Position numbers and translations under genes: made by a program. 42,195 nucleotides of DNA from Flavobacterium sp. SCGC AAA160-P02 (GTDB lineage Bacteria; Bacteroidota; Bacteroidia; Flavobacteriales; Flavobacteriaceae): positions 1 to 42,195 of the forward strand of contig CATISV010000145.1 of NCBI GenBank assembly GCA_949541125.1, in the 5' to 3' direction. Below are positions 1 to 26,687 of the stretch, in pieces. Each line of letters starts with the position of its first letter. Position 1 is the first letter of the stretch. The notes beneath the pieces are model-generated. The model worked only from the letters and a program-made list of their open reading frames with translations. It searched no databases and had not been told where the DNA came from.

Positions 1-849
1 GAAATGACAATGGATTATTTTAGTAGACAAGATATGAAAATGACCCCTCCAGATTCTCTATCTAAAAAAGACAAAAGGAAATGGAGTCAATTTGGATTTA
101 AACCCAACGAAATAGTTGTTCCTAATAAAAATTTAAGTCCACAAGAAATTCGTCGATGGAAGTATCAAAAGTATATCAAAGACTATTTAGCAACGATTAA
201 ATCTGTAGATGATAATATTGGAAGAGTATTAGACTACTTAAAAGAAAATGGATTAGAAAAAAACACGATTGTTATCTATGCTTCAGACCAAGGCTTTTTT
301 TTAGGTGAACACGGATTTTTTGATAAACGTTTTATGTATGAAGAATCACTGCATATGCCTTTTTTGATTCGTTATCCAGGAAAAATTAAACCTGGAATTA
401 TTATAGATGATATTGTTTCAAATATAGATTTTGCTCCCACCTTACTTGATATGGCTGGAGTTTCTATTCCAGAGCAAGTGCAAGGAAAAAGCTTTTTTAA
501 TAATCTTAAGGGAAAAACTTCTGAAGATTGGCAAAAATCGATGTATTATCACTATTATGAATACCCATACTACCACCGTGTCCAGCCTCATTATGGAATA
601 AGAAATCAACGGTATAAATTAATCCACTTTTATTATAATATCGATGTTTGGGAATTTTATGATCTTCAAAACGACCCCTCAGAAATGAATAATCTTATAA
701 ATTCTAAAGAACATGCGATGCTTATTAATCGTTTAAAGACCGAGTTATACCAACTAAAGAAAGATTATGGGAATACGCTCTCTTTAGAAGAATTAAGACA
801 TATTTCAGATACTGATTTTGGAGGATTAGAGTCAAAAAAGAAGAGCTAG
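1..849 (+). CDS. Sulfatase, C-terminal part (5' end outside window)
   Basis: Frame is open to the left edge; sulfatase C-terminal motifs 'NTIVIYASDQGFFLGEHGFFDKRFMYEESLHMPFLIRYPG' and 'DFAPTLLDMAG'. The N-terminal FGly motif is not in the window. Confidence 0.93.
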   Translation, partial: EMTMDYFSRQDMKMTPPDSLSKKDKRKWSQFGFKPNEIVVPNKNLSPQEIRRWKYQKYIKDYLATIKSVDDNIGRVLDYLKENGLEKNTIVIYASDQGFFLGEHGFFDKRFMYEESLHMPFLIRYPGKIKPGIIIDDIVSNIDFAPTLLDMAGVSIPEQVQGKSFFNNLKGKTSEDWQKSMYYHYYEYPYYHRVQPHYGIRNQRYKLIHFYYNIDVWEFYDLQNDPSEMNNLINSKEHAMLINRLKTELYQLKKDYGNTLSLEELRHISDTDFGGLESKKKS

Positions 850-933
850 GAACCTCATTTGAAGGACAGTTATCAGAATCACAAAAAATACTTTATCATA
901 TATAATTGTTTTTTACAGAGCATAAAATTTTGT

Positions 934-2865
934 TTAGAGTTTTATAAATCTAAAATAATATTGGTTTACTTTTAAAATATAGATTCCCATTTGTAGAGAT
1001 GAAATATCAATATAATTATACCATAGTTGTTTTTTAATTAATTTTCCGTTTATAGAATAAATTTCAATATTATAGATTGGTTTAGAAGATAGTATGTTGA
1101 TTTTATCTATGGCAGGATTAGGGAATATTCTTATTTCAGAATTAGGTAGTCCTTGATCTTGATCAATTGATAGGGCTGAATCAGAGTCTTCACATGTATA
1201 TATGTAATTATTAATCACAACACTATTATCTAGGTTATCAGGTCCTATTTGAATAGCTTCTGGAATAGAAGCACTTGATTCATAATTTTTATAAAAGTCA
1301 CCAATAAGGGTGAGATTATTTTGTGAGTCATAATAATCTGCTGTTCCAGAAACAGGCTCAAACCATGAATATCGCTCTACATAGCTTAAATTTTCTAAGT
1401 AAGGAAGCGCCAATTGCATGAATTCACGATTTACCTGTTCAGTTCTGTGTTTGTTAGCATTAAACTCTGTAATCCAAATAGGCAATCCATATAAATCGTA
1501 AACATTTTCTAAATACTCTGCAAATCGATTGAAAATATTTTGAGGATTTGCGTTTGGCGAATTTAATGGGTTAGCGTCCCAATCATACCAGTGAAGTGCA
1601 ATCACATCTATTCTAATATCATTTTGAATAGCCAGTTGATTAAATGAATCCAACCAATTAAATACAGCACCTTGTCTGCATGCTGGAGAAACTAAGCGTA
1701 AGCCAGTTTTCATTAAATTTTTATAAACCGCAACTGCTGTATCAACGACACACATATTACCATATTGACCAGATTGCCCATTACAATCATCAGGTTCATT
1801 AAATGCCAAAACATGAGTAGATTTATATTTTGATTGGTATAGACTAATATCCTCATCGTTATCAGCACCTCCTCTCCCCCAAGACATGGGTGTATATTCC
1901 CTTAGAAGATCAGATTCACCATGATTACTCCATCTGTAAAACCAGGTATTATTCATTCCTTGAATATCACCTGCTGTCCCTTTTTTAGAGACCCAATTCC
2001 AAGGGATTATTCTAATAAAGGAAATGTCATCAACCAAAAAGTTGGGTAATGATTGTAATTCTAAATCTTCTTCAGAGGCGATAAAAACTTTACTTTTTCC
2101 TGTTCCATCTTCATTAACTGCAAGAGTTAACATATATCCCTTACTAAGAAATAGTGACCGAATCTTATTATTCATTTGATTTGGAATTGATGAACCGCCA
2201 TACACTTGATCAATAGATAAACTCGACTCTGTTCCTTCTAGGTTTTCAAGGGTATAAATTTTTAATGGTGTGGTATCAAAATTGTGGATTCTAATTACTG
2301 TTCCATTATCGTAATAATTATCAAGACGAATATTATCAGGGTAGTTTGCAATGTCCTGAAACACAAAAATTGTTGACAAATAATTAGTATATACGTCGTT
2401 TGGATTTACATTGCTAAGACGCAACCAACTTATATCTGAATTCAAATAAATTTGAACAGAGTTAGATAATGGTATATTAGCAACTAAATTAATGTATGAA
2501 TTTTCATTAATATTGACTTGTCCACCGCTAATGCTAATGGCATTTAGAATTCCATTAGAAATGTGTAAAGTATTGGAATCATTTAATACAATTGCTTCGT
2601 TGGCTTCAACATTACAACTCAAGTATAGGTTAAAATGAATTGGTTGAGAAGGATTGATGCTGCCATTTGCTGGACTAAGGCCTGTACTTGTATCGATCCA
2701 ATTAGACTCATTAAAAAAATCATAATCATTGGCATTTCCTGACCACGAATAGTCTTGAGCTAATCCATAGCTTGATATCACTAAGAGTAAAAAAAATAAG
2801 AGATATCGGTGGGTGGTTTCTAAATGATTTTTTGATATTAATATTGTAGATATTTTTTTTACCAA
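934..2865 (-). CDS. Secreted Asl1/GH128-like glycoside hydrolase with T9SS type A sorting domain
   Basis: Signal peptide-like N-terminus; 'LAFNEPDDCN', 'VSPACRQG', 'VIALHWYDWDANP' and 'LPIWITEFN' resemble the Asl1-like catalytic core; C-terminus 'SEIRIFPNPAIDKINILSSKPIYNIEIYSINGKLI...MGIYILKV' matches a T9SS type A tail. Confidence 0.82.
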   Translation of the reverse strand: MVKKISTILISKNHLETTHRYLLFFLLLVISSYGLAQDYSWSGNANDYDFFNESNWIDTSTGLSPANGSINPSQPIHFNLYLSCNVEANEAIVLNDSNTLHISNGILNAISISGGQVNINENSYINLVANIPLSNSVQIYLNSDISWLRLSNVNPNDVYTNYLSTIFVFQDIANYPDNIRLDNYYDNGTVIRIHNFDTTPLKIYTLENLEGTESSLSIDQVYGGSSIPNQMNNKIRSLFLSKGYMLTLAVNEDGTGKSKVFIASEEDLELQSLPNFLVDDISFIRIIPWNWVSKKGTAGDIQGMNNTWFYRWSNHGESDLLREYTPMSWGRGGADNDEDISLYQSKYKSTHVLAFNEPDDCNGQSGQYGNMCVVDTAVAVYKNLMKTGLRLVSPACRQGAVFNWLDSFNQLAIQNDIRIDVIALHWYDWDANPLNSPNANPQNIFNRFAEYLENVYDLYGLPIWITEFNANKHRTEQVNREFMQLALPYLENLSYVERYSWFEPVSGTADYYDSQNNLTLIGDFYKNYESSASIPEAIQIGPDNLDNSVVINNYIYTCEDSDSALSIDQDQGLPNSEIRIFPNPAIDKINILSSKPIYNIEIYSINGKLIKKQLWYNYIDISSLQMGIYILKVNQYYFRFIKL

Positions 2866-2997
2866 CGTCGGTTTATTTTTTTAAATTTATAAAATTCAGC
2901 ATTATTAAAAATAATAATTTACAAATTGTATATTTAATATAATGTATTCTATATGTTTTTTGTAAAAATTATTTATTTAATCTTAAATTTTTTATGA

Positions 2998-4512
2998 ATG
3001 AGTAAATTTAAATATGTATTTCTATTACTTTTTGTAATGATACTCTCAGGATCAAAAACTATTCAAAAAAAATCAAAATTAAATGTTTTGTTTATCATCG
3101 CAGATGATTTAAATTGTGCTTTGGGTGCTTACGGCGATTCACTTGCAATCACTCCAAACATTGACAAACTTGCAAAAGAAGGTCTTGTTTTTAACAATGC
3201 ACATGTTCAATATCCGCTTTGTGGCCCTTCAAGAATTTCTTTGATGACGGGATTATACCCTGATCAAACAAAATCAAAAAAATTAAGATTATATCTTCGG
3301 CAAACGATTCCGGAGGTTATTACTATTGGACAAAAGTTTAGAATGGAAAATTACCACTCGATAAGAGTTGGTAAAATCTTTCACTATCATAATCCAAGAG
3401 ACATCGGAACTGCTGGACATGATGATTCATATACTTGGGATAGAACTGTAAATCCTTATGGTAGAGACAAAAAAGAAGAATATAAAATTAAAACTTTAAA
3501 ACCTAAACTAGATGGTGGAACCTTGAGTTGGCTTCAGGCAGATGGCTACGACGAAGAACAAACAGATGGTATTGGAGCTACGGAGACCATTGGCTTCCTT
3601 GATGAGTTTGCCAAAAGTGGAGAAAATTTCTTTTTAGCGTTCGGACTTTACCGTCCTCACGTTCCTTTTGTGGCACCAAAGTCTTATTTTGACCTTTACG
3701 ATATCGATGATTTTAGTGTTCCTAAAAGCTCTAAGGAGTATTTGAAAACAATTCCTAAACCTGCAGCATTTACAGTCCGAGCCAAAAAAGAACAAGTTGA
3801 TTTGGATCCTGATTTAGCAAAAAAAATAAAGCATGCCTATTATGCAACTACAAGTTTTATGGATGCTCAGATTGGACGTGTTTTAGATAAATTAAAAGAG
3901 ACTGGTTTAGACAAAAATACAATTGTTGTATTTACATCAGATCATGGATATCACTTGGGAGAACACGGACATTGGCAAAAGCAAACCCTATTTGAGGATG
4001 CCACGAGAGTACCTTTGATTTTTGCAGGACCTGGAATTAAAAAAAATAAAAAAATAATTGATAATCCTGTTGAACTGGTTGATCTTTACCCGACTATAAT
4101 GGATATGGTTCAAATGCAGACACCCAAATTTGTTAGTGGAAAAAGTCTAGTGCCAGTTATGAAAGATTCTAATCATTCGGTCCGTGAAAGTGCCTTAACA
4201 GAGCTACAAGTTTATACAGGAAAGGGAAAAGCCCAGGGTTATGCTTTAAAAACGGATCGTTATCGATTAAATCAATGGGAGTATAATGGAGATGTTAGCT
4301 ATGAATTGTATGACCATAGAATAGATAAGTCTGAGCTGAATAATTTAATAGGTCATAAGGAGTATAAAAAAACAAAAGATTCGCTCAAAACAATCCTTAA
4401 AGGACGAATTGCAGAGGCTAAAAGAGTACCTATTGGTCTTGGAAAACAAATTGATAACGTTCAGCCGTCATTTGAACCTAAAAGAATTCACTCAAAAGCC
4501 AAGAAATTTTAG
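2998..4512 (+). CDS. Sulfatase, iduronate-2-sulfatase-like
   Basis: 'NVLFIIADDLN', FGly motif 'CGPSRISLMTG', 'TIVVFTSDHGYHLGEHGHWQKQTLFEDATRVPLIFAGPG'. Confidence 0.94.
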   Translation: MSKFKYVFLLLFVMILSGSKTIQKKSKLNVLFIIADDLNCALGAYGDSLAITPNIDKLAKEGLVFNNAHVQYPLCGPSRISLMTGLYPDQTKSKKLRLYLRQTIPEVITIGQKFRMENYHSIRVGKIFHYHNPRDIGTAGHDDSYTWDRTVNPYGRDKKEEYKIKTLKPKLDGGTLSWLQADGYDEEQTDGIGATETIGFLDEFAKSGENFFLAFGLYRPHVPFVAPKSYFDLYDIDDFSVPKSSKEYLKTIPKPAAFTVRAKKEQVDLDPDLAKKIKHAYYATTSFMDAQIGRVLDKLKETGLDKNTIVVFTSDHGYHLGEHGHWQKQTLFEDATRVPLIFAGPGIKKNKKIIDNPVELVDLYPTIMDMVQMQTPKFVSGKSLVPVMKDSNHSVRESALTELQVYTGKGKAQGYALKTDRYRLNQWEYNGDVSYELYDHRIDKSELNNLIGHKEYKKTKDSLKTILKGRIAEAKRVPIGLGKQIDNVQPSFEPKRIHSKAKKF

Positions 4513-4683
4513 ACCTTTTATATAAGAAAGTACATCTTAAGAATAAGTTGTGTAGCTAAGAAAAATAAAACAACAACCCCTCCTCAGGTAATTCGCCTTA
4601 CTAATAAACCAAAGTTCATTTTTTTTTCTATTTTAGTTTCTATGAATCATGAAACCTATGGTAGGTTGGCAACTGGTAGTAGT

Positions 4684-6222
4684 ATGACAAAAAATATAAA
4701 AAAAATAATAGTTTTAATTAGCTGTAGCTTTGTTGTTTTTAGCTGTTCTATCGAGAAAAAAATAGAGCGCACACCAAATATAATTTACTTTCTTGCAGAT
4801 GATTTAGGCTATGGAGAGTTAGGCATTTATGGTCAATCCATCATCAAAACACCTCATATAGATGCACTAGCTAAAAATGGAATGATGTTTACTGAACATT
4901 ATTCTGGAGCACCGGTTTGTGCACCTGCAAGATATGTTTTTTTAACAGGAAAACATTCAGGACACTCTTTCATAAGAGGAAATGATGAATGGAATGAAAG
5001 AGGAGATGTTTGGAATTATGAAGAGGTCTATCTTAACCCGGGTTTAGAAGGGCAAAGACCTATACCTAAAAATACTGTTACCTTGGGAGACCGATTAAAA
5101 AAAGCTGGATATACAACGAGTGTTTTTGGAAAATGGGGATTAGGCGCACCTGAATCTGATGGCATACCAACTCTGCAAGGATTTGACTTTTTTTATGGAT
5201 ATAACTGCCAACGACAAGCACATAATCTCTATCCTGCACATCTTTGGGAAAATGAAACTAAAGTTTTATTGAATAACCAATTAGTTTCACCAAGGACCAA
5301 ATTAGACTCCTTGGCTGACCCCTTAAAAGAAGAAAGCTATTTAATATTTACTCAAAATGATTATGCTCCTCAAAAAATTCAAGAAAAAGCATTGTCTTTT
5401 ATTGAGGATAATAAAGATAAGCCTTTCTTTATGTATTATGCATCTCCTTTGCCCCACCTACCCTTACAAGCCCCTAAAGCGTTCGTAGATAAGTATAGAA
5501 AAATTTTAGGTGAGGAGGAGCCATATCTTGGAAATGATAGTTATTTTCCGAATAGGTACCCTAGAGCTACCTATGCTGCGATGATAAGTTATCTTGACCA
5601 TCAATTGGGTGAGCTTGTTAAAAAACTTAAAGAAAAAGGAATATATGAAAATACCGTTATAATTTTCTCTAGTGATAATGGACCTACTTATTTAGGAGGG
5701 GTTGACTATGATTATTTTAAAAGTTCAAAACCATTTTCAAATGGTTACGGACGAACCAAAGGATTTGTGTATGAGGGAGGTATTCGAGTTCCTCTTATTG
5801 TAAGTTGGCCAAATCATATTAAGCCTGGAACTAAAAGTGAACACATATCGGCTTTTTATGATCTTATGCCTACCATATCTGATCTAGCTGGGGTAAGCCC
5901 TCCAAATTCTATTGATGGTATTAGCTTTAAATCAACGTTACTTAATCAAGAACAAATACAACACGATTTTTTGTATTGGGAATTTCCTAGTTATAATGGC
6001 CAACAGGCAGTAAGAATTGGAAAATGGAAAGGTGTTCGTAAAAATATTTTTGATGGTAATTTAGAAATCGAATTATATAATTTAGAAACAGACATAAAAG
6101 AACAAATAGATATTTCTAATCAACATCCTAAAATTGTAGAAAGTATTAAAAGAATTATGAAACAAGAGCATGAACCGGCTTCTAATGAAAAATTCAAGTT
6201 TAAACAATTAGGAGATCTTTAG
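4684..6222 (+). CDS. Arylsulfatase lipoprotein (sulfatase family)
   Basis: 'NIIYFLADDLGYGELGIYGQ', FGly motif 'CAPARYVFLTG', 'GGIRVPLIVSWP'. Start moved from the ORF-track 4642 to the ATG at 4684, which gives a lipoprotein signal 'MTKNIKKIIVLISCSFVVFSCS'. Confidence 0.93.
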   Translation: MTKNIKKIIVLISCSFVVFSCSIEKKIERTPNIIYFLADDLGYGELGIYGQSIIKTPHIDALAKNGMMFTEHYSGAPVCAPARYVFLTGKHSGHSFIRGNDEWNERGDVWNYEEVYLNPGLEGQRPIPKNTVTLGDRLKKAGYTTSVFGKWGLGAPESDGIPTLQGFDFFYGYNCQRQAHNLYPAHLWENETKVLLNNQLVSPRTKLDSLADPLKEESYLIFTQNDYAPQKIQEKALSFIEDNKDKPFFMYYASPLPHLPLQAPKAFVDKYRKILGEEEPYLGNDSYFPNRYPRATYAAMISYLDHQLGELVKKLKEKGIYENTVIIFSSDNGPTYLGGVDYDYFKSSKPFSNGYGRTKGFVYEGGIRVPLIVSWPNHIKPGTKSEHISAFYDLMPTISDLAGVSPPNSIDGISFKSTLLNQEQIQHDFLYWEFPSYNGQQAVRIGKWKGVRKNIFDGNLEIELYNLETDIKEQIDISNQHPKIVESIKRIMKQEHEPASNEKFKFKQLGDL

Positions 6223-6411: not shown

Positions 6412-7656
6412 ATGATTAAAGTATTAAAAGAGGAAGTTGAAAAAAAATTTGGAAAGAGAGTCGAAAATCGTGGAGATTGTGAATTGATTTCTGACGGAAT
6501 TCTTGAAATACTAGACAAAACAATAAGTTACAATACCCTCCGTCGTCTTTATGGTTTAGCCCCCTATTCTAAACCGAATATGAATACACTAAACACATTA
6601 GCAGAATTTATTGGTTACAACAATTATTTGCACTTCACCAAAAATTTTAATTACAAAGAAAAAGCAAGCCTTTTTCAAAAAACCTACAAGTATTTATATG
6701 ATGAAAATGAAAAACAAATTATAAAACTTGTCAAGAAAACAAAAAAAAGTACAGAAGATTATATTGGTTTTTTAACATTCTTGGTAAGGGAACTTTTTCG
6801 AGATAAAAATTTTGATCTTATCAATCGAATTTTTTTACTCAATGAAGTAGATTACCATCAATTTAGCTACGATGAATTAATATATCTTGGAAATTCGTTG
6901 GGGCTGGTCCTGAGAAAAGAAAAAAAAGTCCCTCAAGAATTAAGGAAAAACATAAATTTTAGAAATTGTGTCTTTCTGACATTTGTGGATTACTCATGCT
7001 TAAATTCTTATTATGGAGACTGGGCGAAATCACTAATGCTTTCAAAAAATACTTCAGAGGTTAAATTATTTTCCAGAGCAGTTCTAGAATTTCGAAATTT
7101 TTTAAATCTTAAAAAGGTAAAAGCAATAAAAATAGACATCATCTATTCTAATGAAATACACCCAATTTTGTGTAGTCGTCTGTTGGCTTTATATTTCTTA
7201 TCTAAAAAAAACACTAATGTCGAAGATATTTTAACAACTTACTTAAATTTTTTTAAAAAATCAACTAGCTCATCCGATTACTGGCTTGAATTACTAAGTT
7301 CCTCAGTTCTTACAAAAAATATTGAAGTAATGAAGTTTTTGGTTGAAAATTTAAAATTAAAAAGTGAATTTTTTTATCAAAGAGAACATTTGAATTCCTA
7401 TTATTTCATGTGTGCCTTTTACTATAAATTGACAAATAATAAGCAAAAAGAAATCGAAAATATGAATCGATTTAATATCGAAGAATGCCGATTTAGTTAT
7501 GAAGATTATATATGTATGTTTTATCTCATTTATTTATATCACAGTAACAAGTCTAGCTCTAGAAAAAAGATCTTGAAAAAAAAATATCTAGAGTTGTCTA
7601 AAAAATTAAACTATCCTTACTTTTCAGAGGATTTATTGCTAAATTACTTTGGTTAA
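6412..7656 (+). CDS. Hypothetical protein: putative N-terminal HTH-like domain plus all-helical C-terminal region
   Basis: Long ORF. N-terminal 'ISYNTLRRLYGLAP..KPNMNTLNTLAEFIGYNNYLHF' resembles a small helical motif recalled from other Bacteroidota proteins; the rest is K/L/F/Y-rich and looks helical. Start at the ATG at 6412 is preferred over 6391. Confidence 0.75.
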   Translation: MIKVLKEEVEKKFGKRVENRGDCELISDGILEILDKTISYNTLRRLYGLAPYSKPNMNTLNTLAEFIGYNNYLHFTKNFNYKEKASLFQKTYKYLYDENEKQIIKLVKKTKKSTEDYIGFLTFLVRELFRDKNFDLINRIFLLNEVDYHQFSYDELIYLGNSLGLVLRKEKKVPQELRKNINFRNCVFLTFVDYSCLNSYYGDWAKSLMLSKNTSEVKLFSRAVLEFRNFLNLKKVKAIKIDIIYSNEIHPILCSRLLALYFLSKKNTNVEDILTTYLNFFKKSTSSSDYWLELLSSSVLTKNIEVMKFLVENLKLKSEFFYQREHLNSYYFMCAFYYKLTNNKQKEIENMNRFNIEECRFSYEDYICMFYLIYLYHSNKSSSRKKILKKKYLELSKKLNYPYFSEDLLLNYFG

Positions 7657-7788
7657 AGTAAATCTTCTATTTTGAATAAGTAAATCGAAGGAGGTTGGGG
7701 AAGTATTACAAGAAACAATACTTAATAATCCAAACAATAGTATTATGAATCTTAATATGAGACTAATCATTTGAGTTATTGTTTAATC

Positions 7789-8859
7789 TTATATATTATT
7801 TAATTCAACACCCAATCCAGGTTTATCAGAGATACTCATCATCCCGTCTTTAAGAATAAAACCACCATTTACAATATCTTCAGCAAGGTCTAGGCTTCCG
7901 TCAAGATCGAGATATTTAGTGTTTACACAAGCATATGCTGCATGTAAGGCAGCTGTTATGCTTACAATACTTTCATCATTACATCCCCAAAATAAATCAA
8001 TCCCTCCAACCTTTGCAATGGTAGCAATCTCTAACGCGGACAAAATACCTCCACATTTCATTAATTTAATATTGAAAATACCATAGGGTTGAGGAGAAGG
8101 AGTGAAGCTTATCGCACTTTTACTATTTTTTAGACTTTCATCGGCAACTAAAATACTCCTATATTGCTTGTCTATTTCACTTAGTTCAGTTTCTTTACCT
8201 ACCAACAGAGGCTGCTCAATGATTTCTAACCCTAGCTTGTTTGTAGCCTTTATAAATTGTTCTAAATCTTTAACCTCATAGCCTTGATTGGCATCAACTC
8301 TAATTTTTATATTGTGAAATTTCTCATTAACTTTTATAATTCGCTCAATATCTAACTCTACTTCTTGCCCTGTTTTAATTTTTAAAACTTTAAAGCCCTG
8401 TTGTACATATTCCGATGCTTGTCTAAGAGTATCTTGTACATCCATGATACCAATAGTTACTGAGGTTGGAAGAGCATGGATATGTTGCCCATAAATTGCA
8501 GTCACTGGAATATTTAAATATTTTGCAAAAGCATCATGTAAAGCAATATCCCAAAGTACCAAAGTGCCTGGCTTATTTGGAAAAGCTATACTCACATCAT
8601 AGATCATAGATCTGAAATATTTTATGCTTTTTCCAATAAATTTTTGAAAATAATCTGACTGATAGGTTTTTAAAACATCTGCTGGAGATTCACCTACAAC
8701 TTGAAAATCTGGATTCGCTGCTCCAATACCAATAATTCCATTTTCAAGTGTAATAAGTAAAAATACATTTTCTACCTCAGTAATAGTTTTATAGGCAATT
8801 GTATAAGGCTTTGTTAGGACTAAGTTTTTAGAAAAAAATTCAATATTTTTTATATTCAT
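7789..8859 (-). CDS. dgcA: Enolase-superfamily epimerase/racemase (dipeptide epimerase or N-acetyl-D-Glu racemase DgcA type)
   Basis: 'VLKIKTGQEVELDIERI' (KxK), 'IRVDANQGY', 'IIEQPL', 'ILVADES', 'NIKLMKCGG' active-site motifs. The dgcA symbol rests mainly on the 4-bp overlap with the DUF1611/DgcN-type gene. Confidence 0.85.
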   Translation of the reverse strand: MNIKNIEFFSKNLVLTKPYTIAYKTITEVENVFLLITLENGIIGIGAANPDFQVVGESPADVLKTYQSDYFQKFIGKSIKYFRSMIYDVSIAFPNKPGTLVLWDIALHDAFAKYLNIPVTAIYGQHIHALPTSVTIGIMDVQDTLRQASEYVQQGFKVLKIKTGQEVELDIERIIKVNEKFHNIKIRVDANQGYEVKDLEQFIKATNKLGLEIIEQPLLVGKETELSEIDKQYRSILVADESLKNSKSAISFTPSPQPYGIFNIKLMKCGGILSALEIATIAKVGGIDLFWGCNDESIVSITAALHAAYACVNTKYLDLDGSLDLAEDIVNGGFILKDGMMSISDKPGLGVELNNI

Positions 8860-9905
8860 GATTGTAGGCCTTTAATTTCTGAGATAATCCTTGTTACACC
8901 CTCCTCCAAAGGCATAACCACAGGAATACCTAAAGATTTTTTATACCTAGTCTGATAATCTAGTGCTTCCTCTTTAGAAAGGCCTCTTGTGTTGAGAGCA
9001 AGAGCAATAACTTTCGCACCAAATTTTTCGATAATTTCAATTTCTGATGCCACAGAAGGAATTTCTCCCCATATAGGATCATTATCAAAATATGTTTTTT
9101 TCGGATCATTAATTAATACAATTTGCTTTGCATTTCCTGAAATTAAAAATTCTATACCACATGGACCACTTGGATTTCTTAAACTAGATTGTCCTTCTAA
9201 AAGAATTAGATCTGGTGTAGCTTCTTTCCAACAGTTTACAATAGCATTTTCAAGTTCACCAGCAACAAATTCATTGAGAGTTGAGTCAAATATAAATCCA
9301 TATTTATTGCCTTGCATCCAACCAGTTTGACCTGTATAAATCATTTCTACACGCATATTCATATTTAAACATTCTTCCTTCACAAATCTAGCGGTAGTAC
9401 GTTTTCCCATAGCACAATCCATAGCTAAAAAAGCAACAATAGGAACATCAACTTTATAGATATCACCTTTCCAAAAATGTAAATCCTTACTTGATTTTGG
9501 TGTACGAATATCAATTAGTTCAACACCATTTTCTTTCGCTAATAAAGCAACTTCTTTGTGTTCATTTAGTTTTTCATGCAGACCATTTACAATACTAATA
9601 TGTTTTGTAATTGCGTCCATAACAACATCTAGAAGTGAATTGGATAAAAACCCTCCAACTGTTGCAACACCCAGAACTAAATAATCAATATTGTCAAACT
9701 TTTTTATCGCTTCATCAATTGAATCAACAACAGGAATATTCCTGAAGGAACCATCTAACAATTCTCCTGCGTCCAAATTTTTGTATTTTGAATCAACAAC
9801 ACCTAGTACATTAAAGCGCTCTGATCCTCTTATTAAACCATGGGCTGTTTTAGCACTATCTGTTAAGAGTAAATTGTCAGTAGCAATAATTACATTTTTC
9901 TTCAT
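8856..9905 (-). CDS. dgcN: DUF1611 family protein (DgcN-type N-acetyltransferase)
   Basis: DUF1611-like two-domain sequence with P-loop-like 'AMDCAMGKRTTARF', 'TGQTGWMQG', 'ILLEGQSSLRNPSGPCG'; stop overlaps the start of the downstream epimerase. Confidence 0.83.
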   Translation of the reverse strand: MKKNVIIATDNLLLTDSAKTAHGLIRGSERFNVLGVVDSKYKNLDAGELLDGSFRNIPVVDSIDEAIKKFDNIDYLVLGVATVGGFLSNSLLDVVMDAITKHISIVNGLHEKLNEHKEVALLAKENGVELIDIRTPKSSKDLHFWKGDIYKVDVPIVAFLAMDCAMGKRTTARFVKEECLNMNMRVEMIYTGQTGWMQGNKYGFIFDSTLNEFVAGELENAIVNCWKEATPDLILLEGQSSLRNPSGPCGIEFLISGNAKQIVLINDPKKTYFDNDPIWGEIPSVASEIEIIEKFGAKVIALALNTRGLSKEEALDYQTRYKKSLGIPVVMPLEEGVTRIISEIKGLQS

Positions 9906-9945
9906 TTCATTACGATTTAAAAAATTGAACTCAATCCGATTTATT

Positions 9946-12759
9946 TTATTGATCGTTTTTCATCAATTCATACCCTTGATTGATTCCTTTTTCCATCGCA
10001 GGAACACCCCGAACCATCCACATTGGTTTCGGAGCTCCTTGAAGGTAATGGTCAAAAAATTGTTGCATTCTAATATTAAAATCTTTTCTATTTTGCATTT
10101 TAAGAGGCCAATGGCGAGCACCATTATAATTTAATAACCACGAGGGTTTTCCTAAGCGTCTTAAACTTACAAAAAATTCGATCCCCTGATACCAGGGCAC
10201 ATGTCCATCTGCATCGTTATGCATTATTAATAATGGGGTATGAATCTTATCTATATTATAAATTGGTGAGTTTTCAAAATAACGCTGAGGATATTCCCAT
10301 GGCGTACCCCCTATTCTACTTTGAGTATGTTCGTATTGAAATTGACGGCTTAAGCCAGTATCCCATCGAATCCCACCAAAAGCACTGATCATGTTTACAA
10401 CAGGAGCACCCGATTCTGCAGCTTTAAATATATTTGTCTTGGTCACTAAATATGCGATTTGATACCCACCCCAACTGTGACCTTGGGTTCCAATATTGTC
10501 TTTATCTACAAATCCTTTTTCTATCAATGATGTGATACCTGGAATCACACAATTGAAAGCACTTTCTCCTGGATAACCAACACGATAATAGACATCAGGA
10601 TTAAAAATTAGATAACCCCTACTGGTATAAAAACTATAATTGATTGTAGATCTTCCAGGATTTGGTGCCCAATACCTGTGAAGGCCATTAGAGCTTTTTT
10701 CATAAAAATTGACAATCATCGGATATTTTTTATTAGGATCAAAATTTTCAGGTTTAATTAGCATTCCTGTTAGTGGTAATCCATCAAGAGAGGACCAATG
10801 CACCAACTCTGCTGTTCCCCAATTATACTCCTCTTGTTGAGGATTCGCATTACTGATAAGGAGCTGTGATGTAAAGCTTAAATCAGACACTCTTATATTA
10901 GGAAACTCTTCGAATGATTGTCTAGTAAAAATGACAATATCACCCAATCTCGCTTTTTTTGGTCTAGAATAACGATAGGGGCCATTTATTAGCTGTGATC
11001 CCTTATTTTTTTTATATCGATATTCAAAATATCCTGAGTTTTTTGAAACCTCATTAAATGTCATCATGAGCATTTTTTCTGAGGTGTCAATATATCGTTT
11101 ATCAGGGTCAAGCTTAACTATTCTATAGGTGGTGCTAATTTCACGTCCTTTCGTAAGTCGTTTACTTGTTCCATTATCAGGGTTATACTCCCAGACATCA
11201 TAACGATCATAAATTAAAATCGTCTTGTCATTTTTTGTCCAACCAGCATGACCATAGGATCTTGGATAATTTGGGGAATCGTTGAGTTCATTGTAGAACT
11301 TTTTGCCTTTTGTTAACTCTGTATACTTATCAGTTGCTATATTATAAGTGTACCAGGTACTATCTATTTGATTATACCCATAAGCATACTTCCCTTTTGG
11401 ACTAAAACTTGCAGAGCTAGGATTGGCTTTAATGGCCATTTTAGAAATACCATTTTCCAGATTTATAATTGCTAAATCATTGGTTGAAAATTGAGCAGTC
11501 CATTGTGAACTTAATTGGTAAGGCTTTTTGGTACTAATTAAAGCATAATCACCGTTACCCTCATCAGACAATACAGCATTTGGAAATTCTTGAGTTGCTA
11601 TTTGTATCAGTTTTTTATCTTTTAAGTGGTATACGGTTTGGAATGATTTTTTCCTGTCATTTTTAACTTGTTTTTCTTGAACAGTATACAACCTAGGTTC
11701 ATCATAGGTCCATACTTCAACATTGACAATTTCTTCTTTCAACAATAGGGTATCCTGAACAATCTCTGGTAATGCCAATCCAAAATAAAGTTTACTTTCA
11801 TCTTTAGAAAATGTAATTGAACCATCTGAAGATACATGATATCCTTGAGGCGTACTGTTATCATTTACGATTAATTTGGCCTTATCATTCGATGAATTCC
11901 ACGCATACAATTCATTGGGTCTATGGTATGCTTTTGTGGAGTCAGCATCCACAACAAACCCTAGGTTTTTGCCTGAATCGCTTAAACGAAGCTTAAAATA
12001 TGTTGTTTTATGATGAGAATCAAAAACATGTTTAGTTGTGTTAGTTTTTAAATCAGTAACATAAACTCCAGCTTTTATTTTACCTTTAAGTCCTGTAGTT
12101 GAATACGCCAAGGTTTTGGCTTTCTTTGCAAAAGTGTAATTTGTTACAAAATGAATGGTGTCTTCTTGTGATGTTTTTAAATTACGAATAATCAGTGGGT
12201 ACCCATTTTTTGAACTCGGTTTTTTTTTCTTTTTATTTGGTTTAGCTTTAACTGTATCTTTTGCTTTTTTTGCTTTTTTTAATTTTGTCTGAGTCTTAGC
12301 ATTTGAAGAATTATAAGTATATGCAATAAAACCTGACCATTTTTCAGGGATCTTGTACGATTTTACATTGGCAATTTTTTGAAGAGACTGATTTTGCAAA
12401 TTATAAATACCAATGGAATCTTTTGGTAAGTTATCTTTTTTTACTTTTCTCCGTTTCATTTCAATAATACTATCAGTCCATGCTTTAATTTTGAAAAGAG
12501 CAAATTTTGCATCGTAGGTAAATTGACCATCCTCGGATCTTTCATAATCAAATATTAAATGGCCCTGACGGTCTTTAATTTTTAGATGACTATCTTTTTC
12601 ACCCTGTTGAAGAGAATACATGACATAATCACCCTCTGCACCAATAACTGGATTTTGAATTCTATTCCAGATGTCAAAGTCTGGATGGTCTAGTATTTTT
12701 TTCTGTGAAAATGTATTTATAGTTATTAATATCGATAGAGTACAAAAAAATTGTTTCAT
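9946..12759 (-). CDS. S9 family (prolyl oligopeptidase-type) peptidase, exported
   Basis: Signal peptide-like N-terminus; 'GTQGHSWGGYQIAYLVTKT' nucleophile motif, 'LLIMHNDADGHVPWYQG', 'GARHWPLK'. Confidence 0.92.
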   Translation of the reverse strand: MKQFFCTLSILITINTFSQKKILDHPDFDIWNRIQNPVIGAEGDYVMYSLQQGEKDSHLKIKDRQGHLIFDYERSEDGQFTYDAKFALFKIKAWTDSIIEMKRRKVKKDNLPKDSIGIYNLQNQSLQKIANVKSYKIPEKWSGFIAYTYNSSNAKTQTKLKKAKKAKDTVKAKPNKKKKKPSSKNGYPLIIRNLKTSQEDTIHFVTNYTFAKKAKTLAYSTTGLKGKIKAGVYVTDLKTNTTKHVFDSHHKTTYFKLRLSDSGKNLGFVVDADSTKAYHRPNELYAWNSSNDKAKLIVNDNSTPQGYHVSSDGSITFSKDESKLYFGLALPEIVQDTLLLKEEIVNVEVWTYDEPRLYTVQEKQVKNDRKKSFQTVYHLKDKKLIQIATQEFPNAVLSDEGNGDYALISTKKPYQLSSQWTAQFSTNDLAIINLENGISKMAIKANPSSASFSPKGKYAYGYNQIDSTWYTYNIATDKYTELTKGKKFYNELNDSPNYPRSYGHAGWTKNDKTILIYDRYDVWEYNPDNGTSKRLTKGREISTTYRIVKLDPDKRYIDTSEKMLMMTFNEVSKNSGYFEYRYKKNKGSQLINGPYRYSRPKKARLGDIVIFTRQSFEEFPNIRVSDLSFTSQLLISNANPQQEEYNWGTAELVHWSSLDGLPLTGMLIKPENFDPNKKYPMIVNFYEKSSNGLHRYWAPNPGRSTINYSFYTSRGYLIFNPDVYYRVGYPGESAFNCVIPGITSLIEKGFVDKDNIGTQGHSWGGYQIAYLVTKTNIFKAAESGAPVVNMISAFGGIRWDTGLSRQFQYEHTQSRIGGTPWEYPQRYFENSPIYNIDKIHTPLLIMHNDADGHVPWYQGIEFFVSLRRLGKPSWLLNYNGARHWPLKMQNRKDFNIRMQQFFDHYLQGAPKPMWMVRGVPAMEKGINQGYELMKNDQ

Positions 12760-12764
12760 GTTTT

Positions 12765-14651
12765 TTATTTTTTAGTAATAGGGAGTTGTATTTGAGAGGG
12801 ATACTTTGAAGAATGATGAATTTTATTATGTGCAACAATACCTACTTTTTCATCATAATTATTGCCGCCAGTATTTAAATTTCTAGCAAATCTAGGGAAG
12901 TTACTGCTAGAAATTTCTATTCTAATACGATGCCCTTTCTTAAACATATTGCTTGTTGACATTGGTGTTAAATTAACTTCGTAAATATTTCCTTTTTTCA
13001 TAAAAACCTCCTTATCATACCCTTCTCGATAACGAACACGTTGAATAGTCTCATCTAAATTATAGGCAGAACCGTCGGGGTATACATCAATTAATTTAAT
13101 CGTAAAGTCAGTATCCTTTACATCAGAAGACACGTAGAGTTTAGATGTAATAAACCCACTAACCTCAGTATCCTCCTCTAGAACATTTGTAGTGTAAACT
13201 AAGATATCATTTCTAGCTTCCATATCTTTTTGATCAAAAGAACCTCCTTTTACAGCATTTCCCGTGCAACAAACATTGCCTCCATAAGAGGGTACTGGTG
13301 ACATCGGATCATATGTAAATGTATCAGGATGATCTTTTTTGGCTTTACGAGTTGATAGTATTCCATCTCCAAAACGACTATTTGCATTTCCATTACTATG
13401 AAGATAGTAAGTGACCATTTCAGTATTTTCTGGAGGCCAAGTCTCTGCAGATTGCCATTGATTGCTACCCATGGTATAATATTGAACTCTGGGAGTTGTT
13501 TCTTTAAAATTATTTGAGTCTTCTTTTAACCATAAATCAAACCATTTGGTGATTTGTTCATCATAATTTAGTCGTGCATCACCTACACTACGTTCACCTA
13601 CAATTGTATTTTCTGTGGCTCTTGTAAAAGCACAATGGAGTGTTGGAGCTATAACAAGATATTGATTATCTCTAATAAATGCATCTTTTGAATTATTTCT
13701 AGCATGATTAAATAGTTGAATGTTTGGAGTAATCGAAACATCATACCATGACGCAAACCAAAAACTAGGTGTCCCAATATCTTTATCATCATGGTAAATA
13801 CCTCCCTCATACCATTGTGGATCATCTGGTTTTCGACGAATCATTTTATCAAAGATTTCATTTTTACCATTTATGTTTTTTAATATATCTTGAATGGGCA
13901 GATGTTTCAAAGCTTGACTCATGTCAACTTTTGGGTTCTCTGGTGCTAAATCATAAAATCTTGATATTCTAATTAAATCTTCTTGTGTTGCTCCTAAAGG
14001 AATTCTTGGTTTAAATTTGTCATGCTCTACACCATAGAGCCATGAAAAAAACAACATCTGTTCTACTCCTCCACGATACCAATTTCCTTGCTCATTAATA
14101 TCACCTACACGCCCAACGCCAGCTCCAAATCCCTGAGGAACCATCGCAGCATGAGATGGATGATCTAAGGCTGAAACAGCCATTTGCCATTCAGCAGTTG
14201 AAGAACATCCCAGCGTTCCAATTTTTCCATTTGACCAAGACTGATTTTTCATCCATTCAAAGGCGTCATAACCATCCGTAAGAGGTACTCCTAAAATATC
14301 CCACTCACCTTCTGAATAATAACGCCCACGTTCATTTTGAACAACATAGGCATATCCTTTTTTAACATAGTCGTAGGCACGCTTAGCAGTCCTTGTTTGT
14401 TGTTTACCATCTCCCCAAGAGTTAAAATTATAAGGGGTTCTAGAAAAAATAATAGGATATGTACCATTTCCTTTAGGTCTATAAATATCCGTAGAAAGTC
14501 TTACACCATCTCGCATTGGCATCATTACTTTTTGATCAACTATTGCTATCTTGTTTAATTTTTCAAAAATATCTTGTTGAGCTTGCAAAGAGGTTACATA
14601 TACAAAAGAATACAAAAGAGTACTGAAAAGAATAATTATCTTTTTTCTCAT
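12765..14651 (-). CDS. CocE/NonD (X-Pro dipeptidyl-peptidase S15-like) family hydrolase, exported
   Basis: Signal peptide; '[32 protein letters not shown]', '[21 protein letters not shown]', PepX C-terminal-like jelly roll ending '[24 protein letters not shown]'. Confidence 0.92.
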
Positions 14652-15394: not shown

Positions 15395-16693
15395 TTGAAA
15401 CTACAAAGAGAAGTAAATACCTTAGGGCTTAGTGCTAATATTATTAACATTATTATAGGAGGAGGTATTTTTGTTTTACCTGCCACCATCGCTGCTAGTT
15501 TAGGATCTGCTAGTATTATAGCTTATTTATTTTGTGGATTTGTGATGCTATTGGTAATGGGGTGTTTTGCTGAATTAGGAAGTGTCTTTACAGGCGCTGG
15601 AGGAAGTTACAACTATATAGAATCTTCTTTTGGAACTTACCCAGGATTTATAACAGCTCTACTAATTGTATTGGCTTCTTTCTCTGGTGATGCGGCTGTT
15701 GTAAATGCGATTGCAGATATTTTAGGAACTTTTGTACCTGTTTTTAAAGAGTTCTGGATGCGTAGTCTTTTTTTTATATTCCTATTTTTTGGTTTTGGGT
15801 ATATCAATATTATTGGGTTAAAAAAAGGGGTTGGTTTTGTAAAACTAGTTACCTTGTTGAAACTTATACCCTTATTTCTAGTAATTCTGTTTGGTTTTAA
15901 AGAGATCCATCCTTCAAGTCTTCAATGGGATACTATGCCAAGTATAAACGATATTGGGGAAATGTCATTAATCTTATTTTTTGCTTTTATTGGTGCAGAA
16001 AAGGGATTGTCTTTAAGTGGAGAAGTTAAAAATCCCCAAAAAACAATTCCCAAAGCAATAGCGTTAAGCATTGCTGCAATTCTGATTATTTATATTCTTA
16101 TTCAGCTCATTTCACAGGGCGTTTTAGGTGACACCCTTTCTAAATACGATAAAAATCCATTAGCAGAGGTTGCTAATCTTATGTTTGGACCTATCGGTTT
16201 TACCATCATGACCTTTGGAGCCGCAATTTCGATGATTGGTAGTTTAAGTAGTAAAATTCTTAGTATGCCAAGAGTCATTTTTGCAGCGTCAAAAAACAAT
16301 GTGATCCCCATAAAGAAACTTGCTGAGGTTCATAAAAAATTTGCAACACCTTATATATCCATCATTTTATATACTGGCCTAGGGTTCTTGTTTGCAATCA
16401 TTGGAGGTTTTAAAGAATTAGCCATTATTTCAAGTGCCTCAACCTTGCTAATTTATCTTGGAATATCCTTAGCTACTCTAAAATTAAAAATTTCCAAATC
16501 AAAGGATATTTCAGGTGGGTTCAAAGTACCAGGAGGATTTATTGTTCCCGTAATATCTTCAGCAATCATCATATGGCTTTTATCAAAACTATCTCAAGAT
16601 AAAATATGGATGTTCTTAGGGGTATTGTTATTTTTAAGTATTGTTTTTTTACTATTACGTTTTTTTCAAAAAAAATCATTAAATGTTAAATAA
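15395..16693 (+). CDS. APC family amino acid permease
   Basis: 'LGLSANIINIIIGGGIFVLPATIAASLGSASIIAYLFCGFVMLLV' and multiple TM segments typical of APC transporters; TTG start. Confidence 0.92.
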   Translation: MKLQREVNTLGLSANIINIIIGGGIFVLPATIAASLGSASIIAYLFCGFVMLLVMGCFAELGSVFTGAGGSYNYIESSFGTYPGFITALLIVLASFSGDAAVVNAIADILGTFVPVFKEFWMRSLFFIFLFFGFGYINIIGLKKGVGFVKLVTLLKLIPLFLVILFGFKEIHPSSLQWDTMPSINDIGEMSLILFFAFIGAEKGLSLSGEVKNPQKTIPKAIALSIAAILIIYILIQLISQGVLGDTLSKYDKNPLAEVANLMFGPIGFTIMTFGAAISMIGSLSSKILSMPRVIFAASKNNVIPIKKLAEVHKKFATPYISIILYTGLGFLFAIIGGFKELAIISSASTLLIYLGISLATLKLKISKSKDISGGFKVPGGFIVPVISSAIIIWLLSKLSQDKIWMFLGVLLFLSIVFLLLRFFQKKSLNVK

Positions 16694-17883: not shown

Positions 17884-18997
17884 AAAAATTCATATCGTAT
17901 CTTTTGATGTCCCATATCCTGCCAATTACGGAGGTGTTATCGATATTTTTTATAAAATAAAATCACTACATGCTTTAGGGGTAGAAATTTACCTTCATAC
18001 ATTTGAATACGGAAAAGGGAAACAACAAGAACTAAACAACTATTGTAAGAAAGTTTTCTACTACCAAAGAAAACCATTCATAAAAAGTTTTCTTTCAACA
18101 AACCCTTTCATTGTCGTAACAAGAACAAACAAAAATTTAATAAAAAACTTACTTATTGACGAAAACCCAATACTATTTGAAGGACTTCATACCACATTCC
18201 CTATTCTTGATAATCAGTTAAATGGAAGGAAAACATTTATAAGAGCTCATAATGTAGAACATCTTTTTTATAAGGGTCTAGCAAAGAGTGAATCAAATAT
18301 TTTCAAACGTATTTTTTTTAGCCAAGAATCTAGAAAATTAAAACGATATGAGAAGGTTTTTAATAAAACGCAGGGAGTTTTTTCTATCTCACCTATTGAA
18401 CAAAATTATTTTAAAAATAAGTATGGAGATAAATGTGTGTATATTCCTGCTTTTCATGACACTAAAAGACATACAAGCATAAAGAAAAGAGGAGATTTCA
18501 TTTTATACCATGGTAATCTTTTGGTATCAGAAAATGTAAAAGCTGCATTATTTTTAATTGATACTTATAAAGATTCAGGTTACAAATTCGTTATTGCTAG
18601 TAGTAATATAAACAAGGAAATATCTGCATCAATTTCAACCTGTAAAAATATTAGATTTTATCATTTGGTTGAAGAAATTGATTTGTATCAATTATTTGAA
18701 AAAGCACACATAAATGTGCTCCCAACTTTTCAAAATACAGGAATTAAGTTAAAGCTTTTAAATACACTATACCAAGGAAAATTTGTAATTGCAAATGATT
18801 TAATGATTGATCAAACAGGCTTGGAATCATTATGTGAAAAAGCAAATACAAAGGTTGATTTTTTAAATAAGACAAAAGAATTATATGAGAAAGATTTTAA
18901 AGAATCTATTTTAGAAGAACGTAAAAAAATATTAAAAAACTTTGCACCAATAGAAAGTGCAAAAAAAATAATCGATTTTATGTTTCGGTCGTTTTAG
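17876..18997 (+). CDS. Glycosyltransferase
   Basis: 'SFDVPYPANYGGVIDIFYKIKSLHALGVEIYLHTF', 'RAHNVEHLFYKGLAKSE', 'GIKLKLLNTLYQGKFVIAND'; 8-bp overlap with the upstream GT; TTG start. Confidence 0.85.
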   Translation: MTKKIHIVSFDVPYPANYGGVIDIFYKIKSLHALGVEIYLHTFEYGKGKQQELNNYCKKVFYYQRKPFIKSFLSTNPFIVVTRTNKNLIKNLLIDENPILFEGLHTTFPILDNQLNGRKTFIRAHNVEHLFYKGLAKSESNIFKRIFFSQESRKLKRYEKVFNKTQGVFSISPIEQNYFKNKYGDKCVYIPAFHDTKRHTSIKKRGDFILYHGNLLVSENVKAALFLIDTYKDSGYKFVIASSNINKEISASISTCKNIRFYHLVEEIDLYQLFEKAHINVLPTFQNTGIKLKLLNTLYQGKFVIANDLMIDQTGLESLCEKANTKVDFLNKTKELYEKDFKESILEERKKILKNFAPIESAKKIIDFMFRSF

Positions 18998-19667
18998 TAA
19001 CAACTTCAAATAACTTTCCGCCTTCACACTTAATGGTTTTTTGTTTAAATTTAAGTATCAAAGCGTAATCATGAGTAGCCATGATGATACTTTTACCACT
19101 CTGATGAATTTTATTTAATAAATCCATAACTTCTAAAGAAGTTTTAGGATCTAAATTTCCTGTAGGCTCATCGGCTAAAATTAAGTCAGGATCGTTTAAC
19201 AAAGCCCTAGCAATAGCAACCCTTTGTTGTTCTCCCCCCGATAACTCAAAAGGGTTTTTATAGTATTGTGTTTTCATACCCACATGATTCAAGACCTCTT
19301 CAATTTTGGTCTTCATAGAGGCTTTATCTTTCCATCCTGTTGCCTTTAGTACAAACAAAAGATTATCAAAGACGGTTCTGTCATTTAACAGTTTAAAGTC
19401 TTGGAAAACAATTCCAATTTTTCTTCTGAGATACGGAATTTCTTTATCTTTTAATTTTTTAAGATCAAAACCAACAATAGACCCAGTACCTCTTTGTAGT
19501 TTTAAATCTCCATATAAGGTTTTCATTAAACTACTTTTACCACTTCCTGTCTTTCCAATCAAATAAAAAAATTCTCCTTTATTTATTGTCAAATTTACTT
19601 TGGATAACACCAATTTATCTCTTTGTAGAATGTCAGCGTTTTCTAGATATAAGATTGGATTTTCCAT
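18978..19667 (-). CDS. ftsE: Cell division ATP-binding protein FtsE (ABC ATPase)
   Basis: Walker A 'GKTGSGKSSL', signature 'LSGGEQQRVAIARAL', Walker B 'LILADEPTGNLDP'; FtsE-like size and 'VFQDFKLLNDRTVFDNL'. Confidence 0.82.
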   Translation of the reverse strand: MENPILYLENADILQRDKLVLSKVNLTINKGEFFYLIGKTGSGKSSLMKTLYGDLKLQRGTGSIVGFDLKKLKDKEIPYLRRKIGIVFQDFKLLNDRTVFDNLLFVLKATGWKDKASMKTKIEEVLNHVGMKTQYYKNPFELSGGEQQRVAIARALLNDPDLILADEPTGNLDPKTSLEVMDLLNKIHQSGKSIIMATHDYALILKFKQKTIKCEGGKLFEVVTKTTET

Positions 19668-19770
19668 GAAATTGTTCTTTCTACAAACCTACATAATTTT
19701 TTGCATAGAATTTATCACCTATTTTGAGTTAAATTACTTTTAAAATAAATTCAATTGCTATTATTGGCAC

Positions 19771-19806
19771 AAATTTTTAGAATTTTTAGAATTTTTAGAA
19801 TTTTTG
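19771..19806. repeat. 9-bp tandem repeat, (A)ATTTTTAG/AATTTTTAG about four copies
   Basis: Read directly: aaatttttagaatttttagaatttttagaattttt, about 55 bp upstream of the TPR gene. Confidence 0.9.
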
Positions 19807-19861
19807 CCCAACAAAAAATTAAATCACTCGTTATTAGTAGAAAGTAGTACAAAATTAATAC

Positions 19862-22897: not shown

Positions 22898-22902
22898 TCC
22901 TA

Positions 22903-26326: not shown

Positions 26327-26677
26327 ATGCTAATTATAACCATTATTTTTGGTTTTTTATTTATGGTTGCAGGACTTTCTCATATCGTAAACCCAAAATT
26401 TTTTGAGCATTTTATTCCCAATATATTTCCAAAATTAACTGTTAACTATATCGTTGGTTTTATCGAATTTGTTTTGGGCTTAGGATTGTTTTTTCCAACA
26501 ATGACTTCCTATGCCTCCCTAGGAATTTTTATCATAATGTTTTTATTTCTTCCAATCCATGTCTGGGATGCAACAAAAAAAAAGCCTGCTATTGGCTCTA
26601 AATTTATTGCATACATAAGAATACTCTTACAATTTTTGTTCCTGTATGGGGCCTATTCAATATACCAAAACTCATAA
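26327..26677 (+). CDS. DoxX-like membrane protein
   Basis: Four TM-like segments; 'FLFMVAGLSHIVNPKFFEHFIPNIFP...GFIEFVLGLGLFFPT'. Confidence 0.82.
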   Translation: MLIITIIFGFLFMVAGLSHIVNPKFFEHFIPNIFPKLTVNYIVGFIEFVLGLGLFFPTMTSYASLGIFIIMFLFLPIHVWDATKKKPAIGSKFIAYIRILLQFLFLYGAYSIYQNS

Positions 26678-26687
26678 TAATTACTCT

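What the first reader, a model, noticed from the sequence alone, without database searches (positions are those of the whole stretch)
7789..14651. Four-gene peptidase-DgcN-DgcA run: candidate D-glutamate / D-amino-acid peptide catabolic operon
Seen: four minus-strand genes spaced +5, +40 and -4 bp (exported CocE/NonD hydrolase, exported S9 peptidase, DUF1611 protein, enolase-superfamily epimerase). Established: DUF1611 proteins of the DgcN type paired with enolase-superfamily DgcA act in D-glutamate catabolism through N-acetyl-D-Glu racemisation to N-acetyl-L-Glu; the same enolase group also contains L-Ala-D/L-Glu epimerases. Inference: joining two exported serine hydrolases to this pair suggests uptake and breakdown of D-Glu-containing peptides (for example peptidoglycan stem peptides or D-residue-rich marine organic matter), with both steps in one transcription unit.
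Basis: partly seen in the sequence, partly recalled or inferred. Interest (0 to 1): 0.72.

Follow-up and report, generated by a model that had tools for sequence, protein, structure and literature searches.

The report
Dipeptide epimerase–DUF1611 pair beside peptidases
A flavobacterium carries two exported protein- or ester-cutting enzymes directly in front of a probably borrowed two-gene unit that may flip mirror-image amino acids within small peptides; it resembles, but is not, the known D-glutamate pathway.

Summary
The four genes, coordinates and spacings (+5, +40, -4 bp) are as described. The enolase-superfamily enzyme is not DgcA: it scores 133 bits against a DgcA cut-off of 400, matches Pseudoalteromonas CF6-2 DgcA only partially (30%), and falls in a strongly supported clade with the Methylococcus dipeptide epimerase 3RIT, with conservative versions of all three published 3RIT specificity residues (K24, D51, D295). 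The DUF1611 protein has the DgcN fold and P-loop motifs but is 27% identical to CF6-2 DgcN and fails its cut-off. The genome has a separate ordinary L-Ala-D/L-Glu epimerase, so peptidoglycan recycling is not the obvious role. The DUF1611–epimerase pair is an old unit (adjacent, same strand, in 67 of 80 loci, several phyla), often near exported D-aminoacylase- or beta-lactamase-type hydrolases and permeases. That supports a D-residue-peptide theme, but not glutamate. The CocE/S9 genes come from a different conserved run (CocE–BNR–S9–cupin–SDR–SDR); their junction with the pair was found nowhere else. Most likely this is a laterally acquired, non-glutamate D-dipeptide module behind two exported hydrolases. 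Substrate and co-transcription are unproven.

The parts
12765..14651 (-). Exported CocE/NonD-family (S15-like) serine hydrolase, 628 aa; triad candidates S150, D304, H339
   Evidence: TIGR00976 367 bits, cut-off 66; cocaine esterase 3i2g; 68-87% identical relatives in 60 other Flavobacteriaceae-level genomes of 400
9946..12759 (-). Exported S9-family (prolyl-oligopeptidase-like) peptidase, 937 aa; triad motifs GHSWGG, HNDADGH, GARHW
   Evidence: up to 77% identical orthologues in the family
8856..9905 (-). DUF1611 two-domain protein (Rossmann-like + P-loop, motif AMDCAMGKRTT), DgcN superfamily but not DgcN proper
7789..8859 (-). Enolase-superfamily dipeptide epimerase of the 3RIT clade; catalytic K162/K265, metal ligands D189/E215/D240, DxD 318/320, specificity positions K24/D51/D295
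9906..9945 (-). 40-bp junction between the S9 gene and the DUF1611 gene, i.e. between the two evolutionary modules; in relatives a cupin-SDR-SDR tail follows S9 here
15395..16693 (+). Divergent APC-family amino-acid permease; a genus background gene, judged not part of the module (74% identical in a congener that lacks the module)

Best explanation
The run joins two modules. CocE and S9 are exported serine hydrolases from a Flavobacteriaceae run that normally continues with cupin and short-chain-dehydrogenase genes. Behind them lies a DUF1611-dipeptide-epimerase pair of the type found in Cytophagales, Chitinophagales and Saprospirales, probably gained by lateral transfer. Proposed working: the exported hydrolases release small peptides or acyl-amino compounds; these are taken up; and in the cytoplasm the epimerase inverts the alpha-carbon of the C-terminal residue of a dipeptide containing a D-residue, so that ordinary peptidases can finish it. 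The DUF1611 protein, with a P-loop and ligase-like fold, probably performs a nucleotide- or CoA-dependent step on the same substrate or on a released D-amino acid. The substrate is more likely a cationic or other non-glutamate dipeptide than N-acetyl-glutamate. Shown: gene content, families, conserved residues, phylogeny, conserved pairing, module origins. Inferred: co-transcription, export, substrate, the order of steps, and lateral transfer as the mechanism.
For: Epimerase: 42% identical to 3RIT (271 bits), against 30% over 241 aa to CF6-2 DgcA (72 bits) and 26% to the genome's own AEE. The 3RIT clade holds with SH-aLRT 99. Grouping with DgcA is rejected, p-AU 0.017. Published 3RIT specificity residues R24, E51, D296 (PMC3965090) map to K24, D51, D295; DgcA CF6-2 has G, Y, V there. 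Pairing: 67 of 80 epimerase loci have DUF1611 as the adjacent same-strand gene, 59 in the order DUF1611 then epimerase, often with a 4-bp overlap, including Desulfobacterales, Planctomycetota and Acidobacteriota hosts. Neighbours within 3 genes: D-aminoacylase/beta-lactamase proteins in 25 loci, APC permeases in 15, beta-lactamase2 in 13. DUF1611: model pLDDT 92 matches 2obn, 2g0t and DgcN 7xrj over full length, then at much lower TM-score cyclic-DPG synthetase, BioD, ATP-citrate lyase and succinyl-CoA synthetase. Module origins: CocE-(BNR)-S9-cupin-SDR-SDR in relatives. CocE is absent from 59 congeners, while gyrB on the same contig is 90-92% identical to congeners. Holding the window epimerase with the common Flavobacteriaceae epimerases is rejected, p-AU 0.006.
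Against: No enzyme activity is known to me for any close relative of either protein except 3RIT itself, at 42% identity. Position 51 is Asp in only 4 of 80 pair-linked relatives, so one specificity residue is not a family constant. DgcA also keeps the DxD motif, so that motif does not discriminate. The hydrolase-pair junction is unique so far and may be a chance juxtaposition. The conserved D-aminoacylase partner is missing from the module here.
Confidence: 0.55

Rival explanations
1. One reading: a true DgcN-DgcA pair that acetylates D-Glu and racemises N-acetyl-D-Glu, fed by two exported peptidases.
For: Same superfamilies and the same gene order and overlap style as dgcN-dgcA of CF6-2; P-loop, TGQTG and EGQ motifs shared with DgcN; fold match to DgcN 7xrj.
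Against: Curated DgcN (117 vs 480) and DgcA (133 vs 400) cut-offs missed. 27% and 30% partial identity to the CF6-2 proteins. Tree and AU test. DgcA lacks the D295/D51 counterparts. No dgcR-like regulator adjacent.
Confidence: 0.12
2. A muropeptide-recycling L-Ala-D/L-Glu epimerase, with exported peptidases acting on cell-wall stem peptides.
For: Enolase-superfamily dipeptide epimerase with a basic residue at position 24, as in B. subtilis AEE.
Against: The same genome has a distinct epimerase closest to B. thetaiotaomicron 3iji/3ijl, with E. coli and B. subtilis AEEs among its other best matches. The window enzyme has D295 where the AEEs have I or T. No cell-wall amidase or NlpC/P60 gene is adjacent.
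Confidence: 0.1
3. Chance adjacency: DUF1611-epimerase landed downstream of CocE-S9 and only shares its promoter, without a shared substrate.
For: No other genome has the four-gene order: 0 of 80 epimerase loci, 0 of 40 S9/CocE loci, and six genomes with both S9 and DUF1611 homologues carry them apart. CocE and S9 normally precede cupin-SDR-SDR.
Against: In other lineages the pair is repeatedly next to exported hydrolases of predicted D-amino-acid compounds, so an exported hydrolase partner is common.
Confidence: 0.23

Closest known systems
Methylococcus capsulatus dipeptide epimerase (PDB 3RIT/3RO6)
   Same: Same clade (SH-aLRT 99), catalytic and metal residues, WGCxDES motif, counterparts of R24/E51/D296
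   Different: 42% identity; R24 to K and E51 to D; substrate here untested
DgcN-DgcA D-glutamate pathway (Pseudoalteromonas sp. CF6-2)
   Same: Two-gene unit of a DUF1611-superfamily protein and an enolase-superfamily epimerase; P-loop motifs and fold of DgcN
   Different: 27%/30% partial identity, both curated cut-offs missed, different epimerase clade, no DgcR
Bacteroidota DUF1611-dipeptide epimerase pairs with exported D-aminoacylase / beta-lactamase-like proteins (Spirosoma, Fibrella, Chitinophagaceae)
   Same: Closest relatives of both proteins (up to 58% and 62% identity), same order
   Different: There the partner hydrolases are of amidohydrolase/beta-lactamase type; here CocE and S9
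Flavobacteriaceae CocE-(BNR)-S9-cupin-SDR-SDR run
   Same: CocE and S9 are close relatives (80-87% and 66-77%) in the same order
   Different: The cupin-SDR-SDR tail is absent and DUF1611-epimerase follows instead
Bacterial L-Ala-D/L-Glu epimerases (B. subtilis 1JPM, B. thetaiotaomicron 3IJI)
   Same: Superfamily, KxK and DxD motifs
   Different: 29-30% identity; different specificity positions; the genome has its own copy elsewhere

Membership tests
DgcA (N-acetyl-D-Glu racemase) | NCBIfam NF042940 score above curated cut-off (400 bits) | tested here: not met
   132.8 bits
DgcA (N-acetyl-D-Glu racemase) | Groups with CF6-2 DgcA in a tree | tested here: not met
   Separate, in the 3RIT clade; held-together tree rejected, p-AU 0.017; DgcA is a long branch, so placement of DgcA itself is uncertain
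DgcA (N-acetyl-D-Glu racemase) | Racemises N-acetyl-Glu | not testable with these tools
   Needs an enzyme assay
DgcN (D-Glu N-acetyltransferase) | NCBIfam NF041892 above cut-off (480 bits) | tested here: not met
   117.4 bits; 26.8% over 276 aa to CF6-2 DgcN
DgcN (D-Glu N-acetyltransferase) | DUF1611 two-domain fold with P-loop GxDCxxGK | tested here: met
   (7xrj, TM 0.75); the first Gly of the motif is Ala in the window protein
DgcN (D-Glu N-acetyltransferase) | Acetyl-CoA-dependent acetylation of D-Glu | not testable with these tools
   Needs an enzyme assay
Dipeptide epimerase, 3RIT type | Catalytic lysines K162 and K265/266 and three acidic metal ligands | tested here: met
   K162, K265, D189, E215, D240 aligned with 3RIT
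Dipeptide epimerase, 3RIT type | Specificity residues R24, E51, D296 (PMC3965090) | tested here: inconclusive
   K24, D51, D295: conservative at two positions, identical at one
Dipeptide epimerase, 3RIT type | Clade membership | tested here: met
   SH-aLRT 99 for the set holding 3RIT, window and pair-linked enzymes
L-Ala-D/L-Glu epimerase | NCBIfam AEE models above cut-off | tested here: not met
   186.9 vs 500 and 82.3 vs 343
CocE/NonD hydrolase | TIGR00976 above cut-off and Ser-Asp-His triad | tested here: met
   367 vs 66 bits; S, D, H aligned with cocaine esterase
S9 prolyl oligopeptidase family | Pfam Peptidase_S9 above cut-off with Ser, Asp, His motifs | tested here: met
   92.3 vs 22.6 bits; motifs
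Dpp5 dipeptidyl-peptidase | NF053518 above cut-off | tested here: not met
   76.5 vs 900 bits

The most novel reading that the evidence does not exclude
DUF1611 proteins are a general family of nucleotide- or CoA-dependent enzymes that acylate D-amino acids, each paired with a racemase or epimerase fitted to the product. DgcN makes N-acetyl-D-Glu for DgcA; the type seen here would link a D-amino acid to an aminoacyl or other acyl group, so that a dipeptide epimerase can invert it and a common peptidase can release the L-form: a ligate-invert-hydrolyse route for non-glutamate D-amino acids. A caution: DUF1611 genes paired with PLP-type ornithine racemases do not fit easily, since those racemases need a free amine.
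Probability: 0.15. Interest if true: 0.68.

Novelty: new variant of a known kind. Interest (0 to 1): 0.42.

Why it matters
The physiological substrates of the dipeptide epimerases other than the Ala-Glu type are, to my knowledge, an open question, since their specificities were found by modelling and screening. The multi-phylum pairing with DUF1611 and the recurring D-aminoacylase/beta-lactamase neighbours give a testable pathway for them. They also warn that DUF1611 genes outside the DgcN clade should not be counted as D-glutamate catabolism, as surveys of dgcN in Bacteroidota may do.

Tried and rejected
The window's APC permease as part of the module was rejected: it is 74% identical in a congener without the module, and only 23% identical to the permeases beside the pair elsewhere. 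The window amidohydrolase at 26646-28319 as the missing D-aminoacylase was rejected (34 bits to the pair-linked one). Contig contamination as the reason the genes are absent from congeners was rejected, because gyrB on the contig is 90-92% identical to congeners. DxD as a discriminator between dipeptide epimerase and DgcA was dropped, because DgcA keeps it. The primary papers on DgcN-DgcA (ISME J 2023) and on dipeptide epimerase specificity (PNAS 2012) are not in the held library; the 3RIT residues come from PMC3965090. That 3RIT's ligand is L-Arg-D-Lys, i.e. a cationic dipeptide, is from memory.

Full report
Observation. All four ORFs are present at the stated coordinates and spacings, with intact domains and intact catalytic motifs. 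The order of reading is CocE/NonD hydrolase, S9 peptidase, DUF1611 protein, enolase-superfamily epimerase. Whether they form one transcript is inferred from spacing only.

The epimerase. Its best solved relative by far is 3RIT, the Methylococcus capsulatus dipeptide epimerase (291 bits; the next is B. subtilis AEE at 161). It misses the curated cut-offs for DgcA and for both L-Ala-D/L-Glu epimerase models. The true DgcN and DgcA of Pseudoalteromonas sp. CF6-2 were fetched from the plasmid collection. The window epimerase matches that DgcA at 30% over 241 residues, and 3RIT at 42% over 352. In trees it lies inside a clade with 3RIT and Bacteroidota epimerases (SH-aLRT 99); the careful tree gives a starred set of 21-22 rows holding it, and holding it with DgcA is rejected (p-AU 0.017). 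DgcA is a very long branch, so its own place is uncertain. The SFLD paper (PMC3965090) names K162 and K266 as contributing to proton abstraction and R24, E51 and D296 as thought to take part in specificity in 3RIT. The window has K162, K265, K24, D51 and D295. In 80 relatives the residue at 295 is Asp in 79, while positions 24 and 51 vary. DgcA CF6-2 has Gly, Tyr and Val at the three specificity positions, and the genome's own AEE has Lys, Tyr and Thr.

The genome already holds a second epimerase (contig C164), nearest to B. thetaiotaomicron 3IJI, with the E. coli and B. subtilis AEEs further down. Muropeptide recycling could therefore be served by another gene.

The DUF1611 protein. It shares the P-loop (DCxxGKRTT), TGQTG and EGQ motifs with DgcN, with small differences, and the full fold with 2OBN, 2G0T and 7XRJ (titled N-acetyltransferase DgcN-25328). 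Beyond the family, the nearest folds are cyclic-2,3-diphosphoglycerate synthetase, dethiobiotin synthetase, HypB, ATP-citrate lyase and succinyl-CoA synthetase, with much lower TM-scores. This fits a nucleotide- or CoA-dependent ligase- or transferase-like reaction (inference). It scores 117 bits against the DgcN cut-off of 480.

Conservation of the pair. In 67 of the 80, DUF1611 is the adjacent same-strand gene, 59 in the window's order, often with a 4-bp overlap. Hosts are mostly Cytophagales, Chitinophagales and Saprospirales, but also Thermodesulfobacteriota, Planctomycetota, Acidobacteriota and Balneolota. Neighbours are exported Amidohydro_3 proteins of the N-acyl-D-amino-acid-deacylase type, some fused to a beta-lactamase domain for which a D-aminopeptidase model is the best beta-lactamase-fold equivalog (below its cut-off), beta-lactamase2 proteins, and APC or Gate-type transporters. 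These are predictions by family name, not tested functions. A related DUF1611 subtype pairs with PLP ornithine-racemase-like enzymes and, in Flavobacteriaceae, a VanX-like dipeptidase, and another, in Flavobacteriaceae, with a threonine-synthase-like enzyme and a differently specified epimerase carrying Glu24.

Origin of the four-gene run. In other Flavobacteriaceae, close relatives of CocE and S9 form CocE-(BNR)-S9-cupin-SDR-SDR, with S9 and cupin practically touching. In the window the DUF1611-epimerase pair stands where cupin-SDR-SDR stands elsewhere. None of 40 S9/CocE loci has the pair, none of 80 epimerase loci has CocE, and only one has any S9 homologue (23% identity). Six genomes with both S9 and DUF1611 homologues keep them apart. 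CocE is absent from 59 congeners, and DUF1611 from all but one of 23 congeners, where it is of the ornithine-racemase-linked type. gyrB on the same contig is 90-92% identical to congeners, so the contig is native. Holding the window epimerase together with the common Flavobacteriaceae type is rejected (p-AU 0.006). Lateral gain of the pair is the simplest reading. The neighbouring permease at 15395 is a genus gene present without the block.

Interpretation. The evidence supports a D-residue-peptide theme and a dipeptide-epimerase chemistry, and argues against the D-glutamate assignment. The coupling of exported hydrolysis to epimerisation is plausible by analogy with the recurring hydrolase neighbours, but this particular pairing is unique so far, and chance adjacency is a live rival.

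Literature used: PMC3965090 (specificity residues of 3RIT), PMC12363236 (dgcN as the key gene of a D-acidic-amino-acid route; Bacteroidetes reported as carriers in the Mariana Trench), PMC10845958 (DgcN-DgcA in Shewanella), PMC13338154 (diverse dipeptide epimerases, including one acting on dipeptides with hydrophobic C-terminal residues).

Noticed in passing
7639-7770 (-): A 43-aa lipoprotein-like ORF (lipobox SIVSC) starts 18 bp after the epimerase stop; remnant or tiny lipoprotein.
   Followed up: no
L177:1477-2487 (own genome, contig C164): A second, ordinary Bacteroidota-type L-Ala-D/L-Glu epimerase, nearest to 3IJI.
   Followed up: yes
L043 and window 18978-24669: In another family member the Flavobacteriaceae-type PALP-DUF1611-epimerase run sits beside FtsE/YbgF genes orthologous to those about 9 kb from the window's block; possible insertion hot spot.
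   Followed up: partly
L033, L048-L051, L185, L186: DUF1611 genes paired with ornithine-racemase-like PLP enzymes, in some with a VanX-like dipeptidase; also on Vibrio and Ruegeria plasmids.
   Followed up: partly
L097:5320-7794, L098, L101, L104, L111: Exported fusions of a beta-lactamase domain with an Amidohydro_3 domain (about 790-890 aa) next to DUF1611-epimerase.
   Followed up: partly
L034, L036, L040: Longer D-amino-acid-looking runs: threonine-synthase-like enzyme, DUF1611, a 506-aa protein with a faint MurL hit, creatininase-family protein, epimerase.
   Followed up: no
1-6222: Three sulfatase genes and a glycosyl hydrolase with a T9SS sorting signal: probably part of a polysaccharide-use region.
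   Followed up: no
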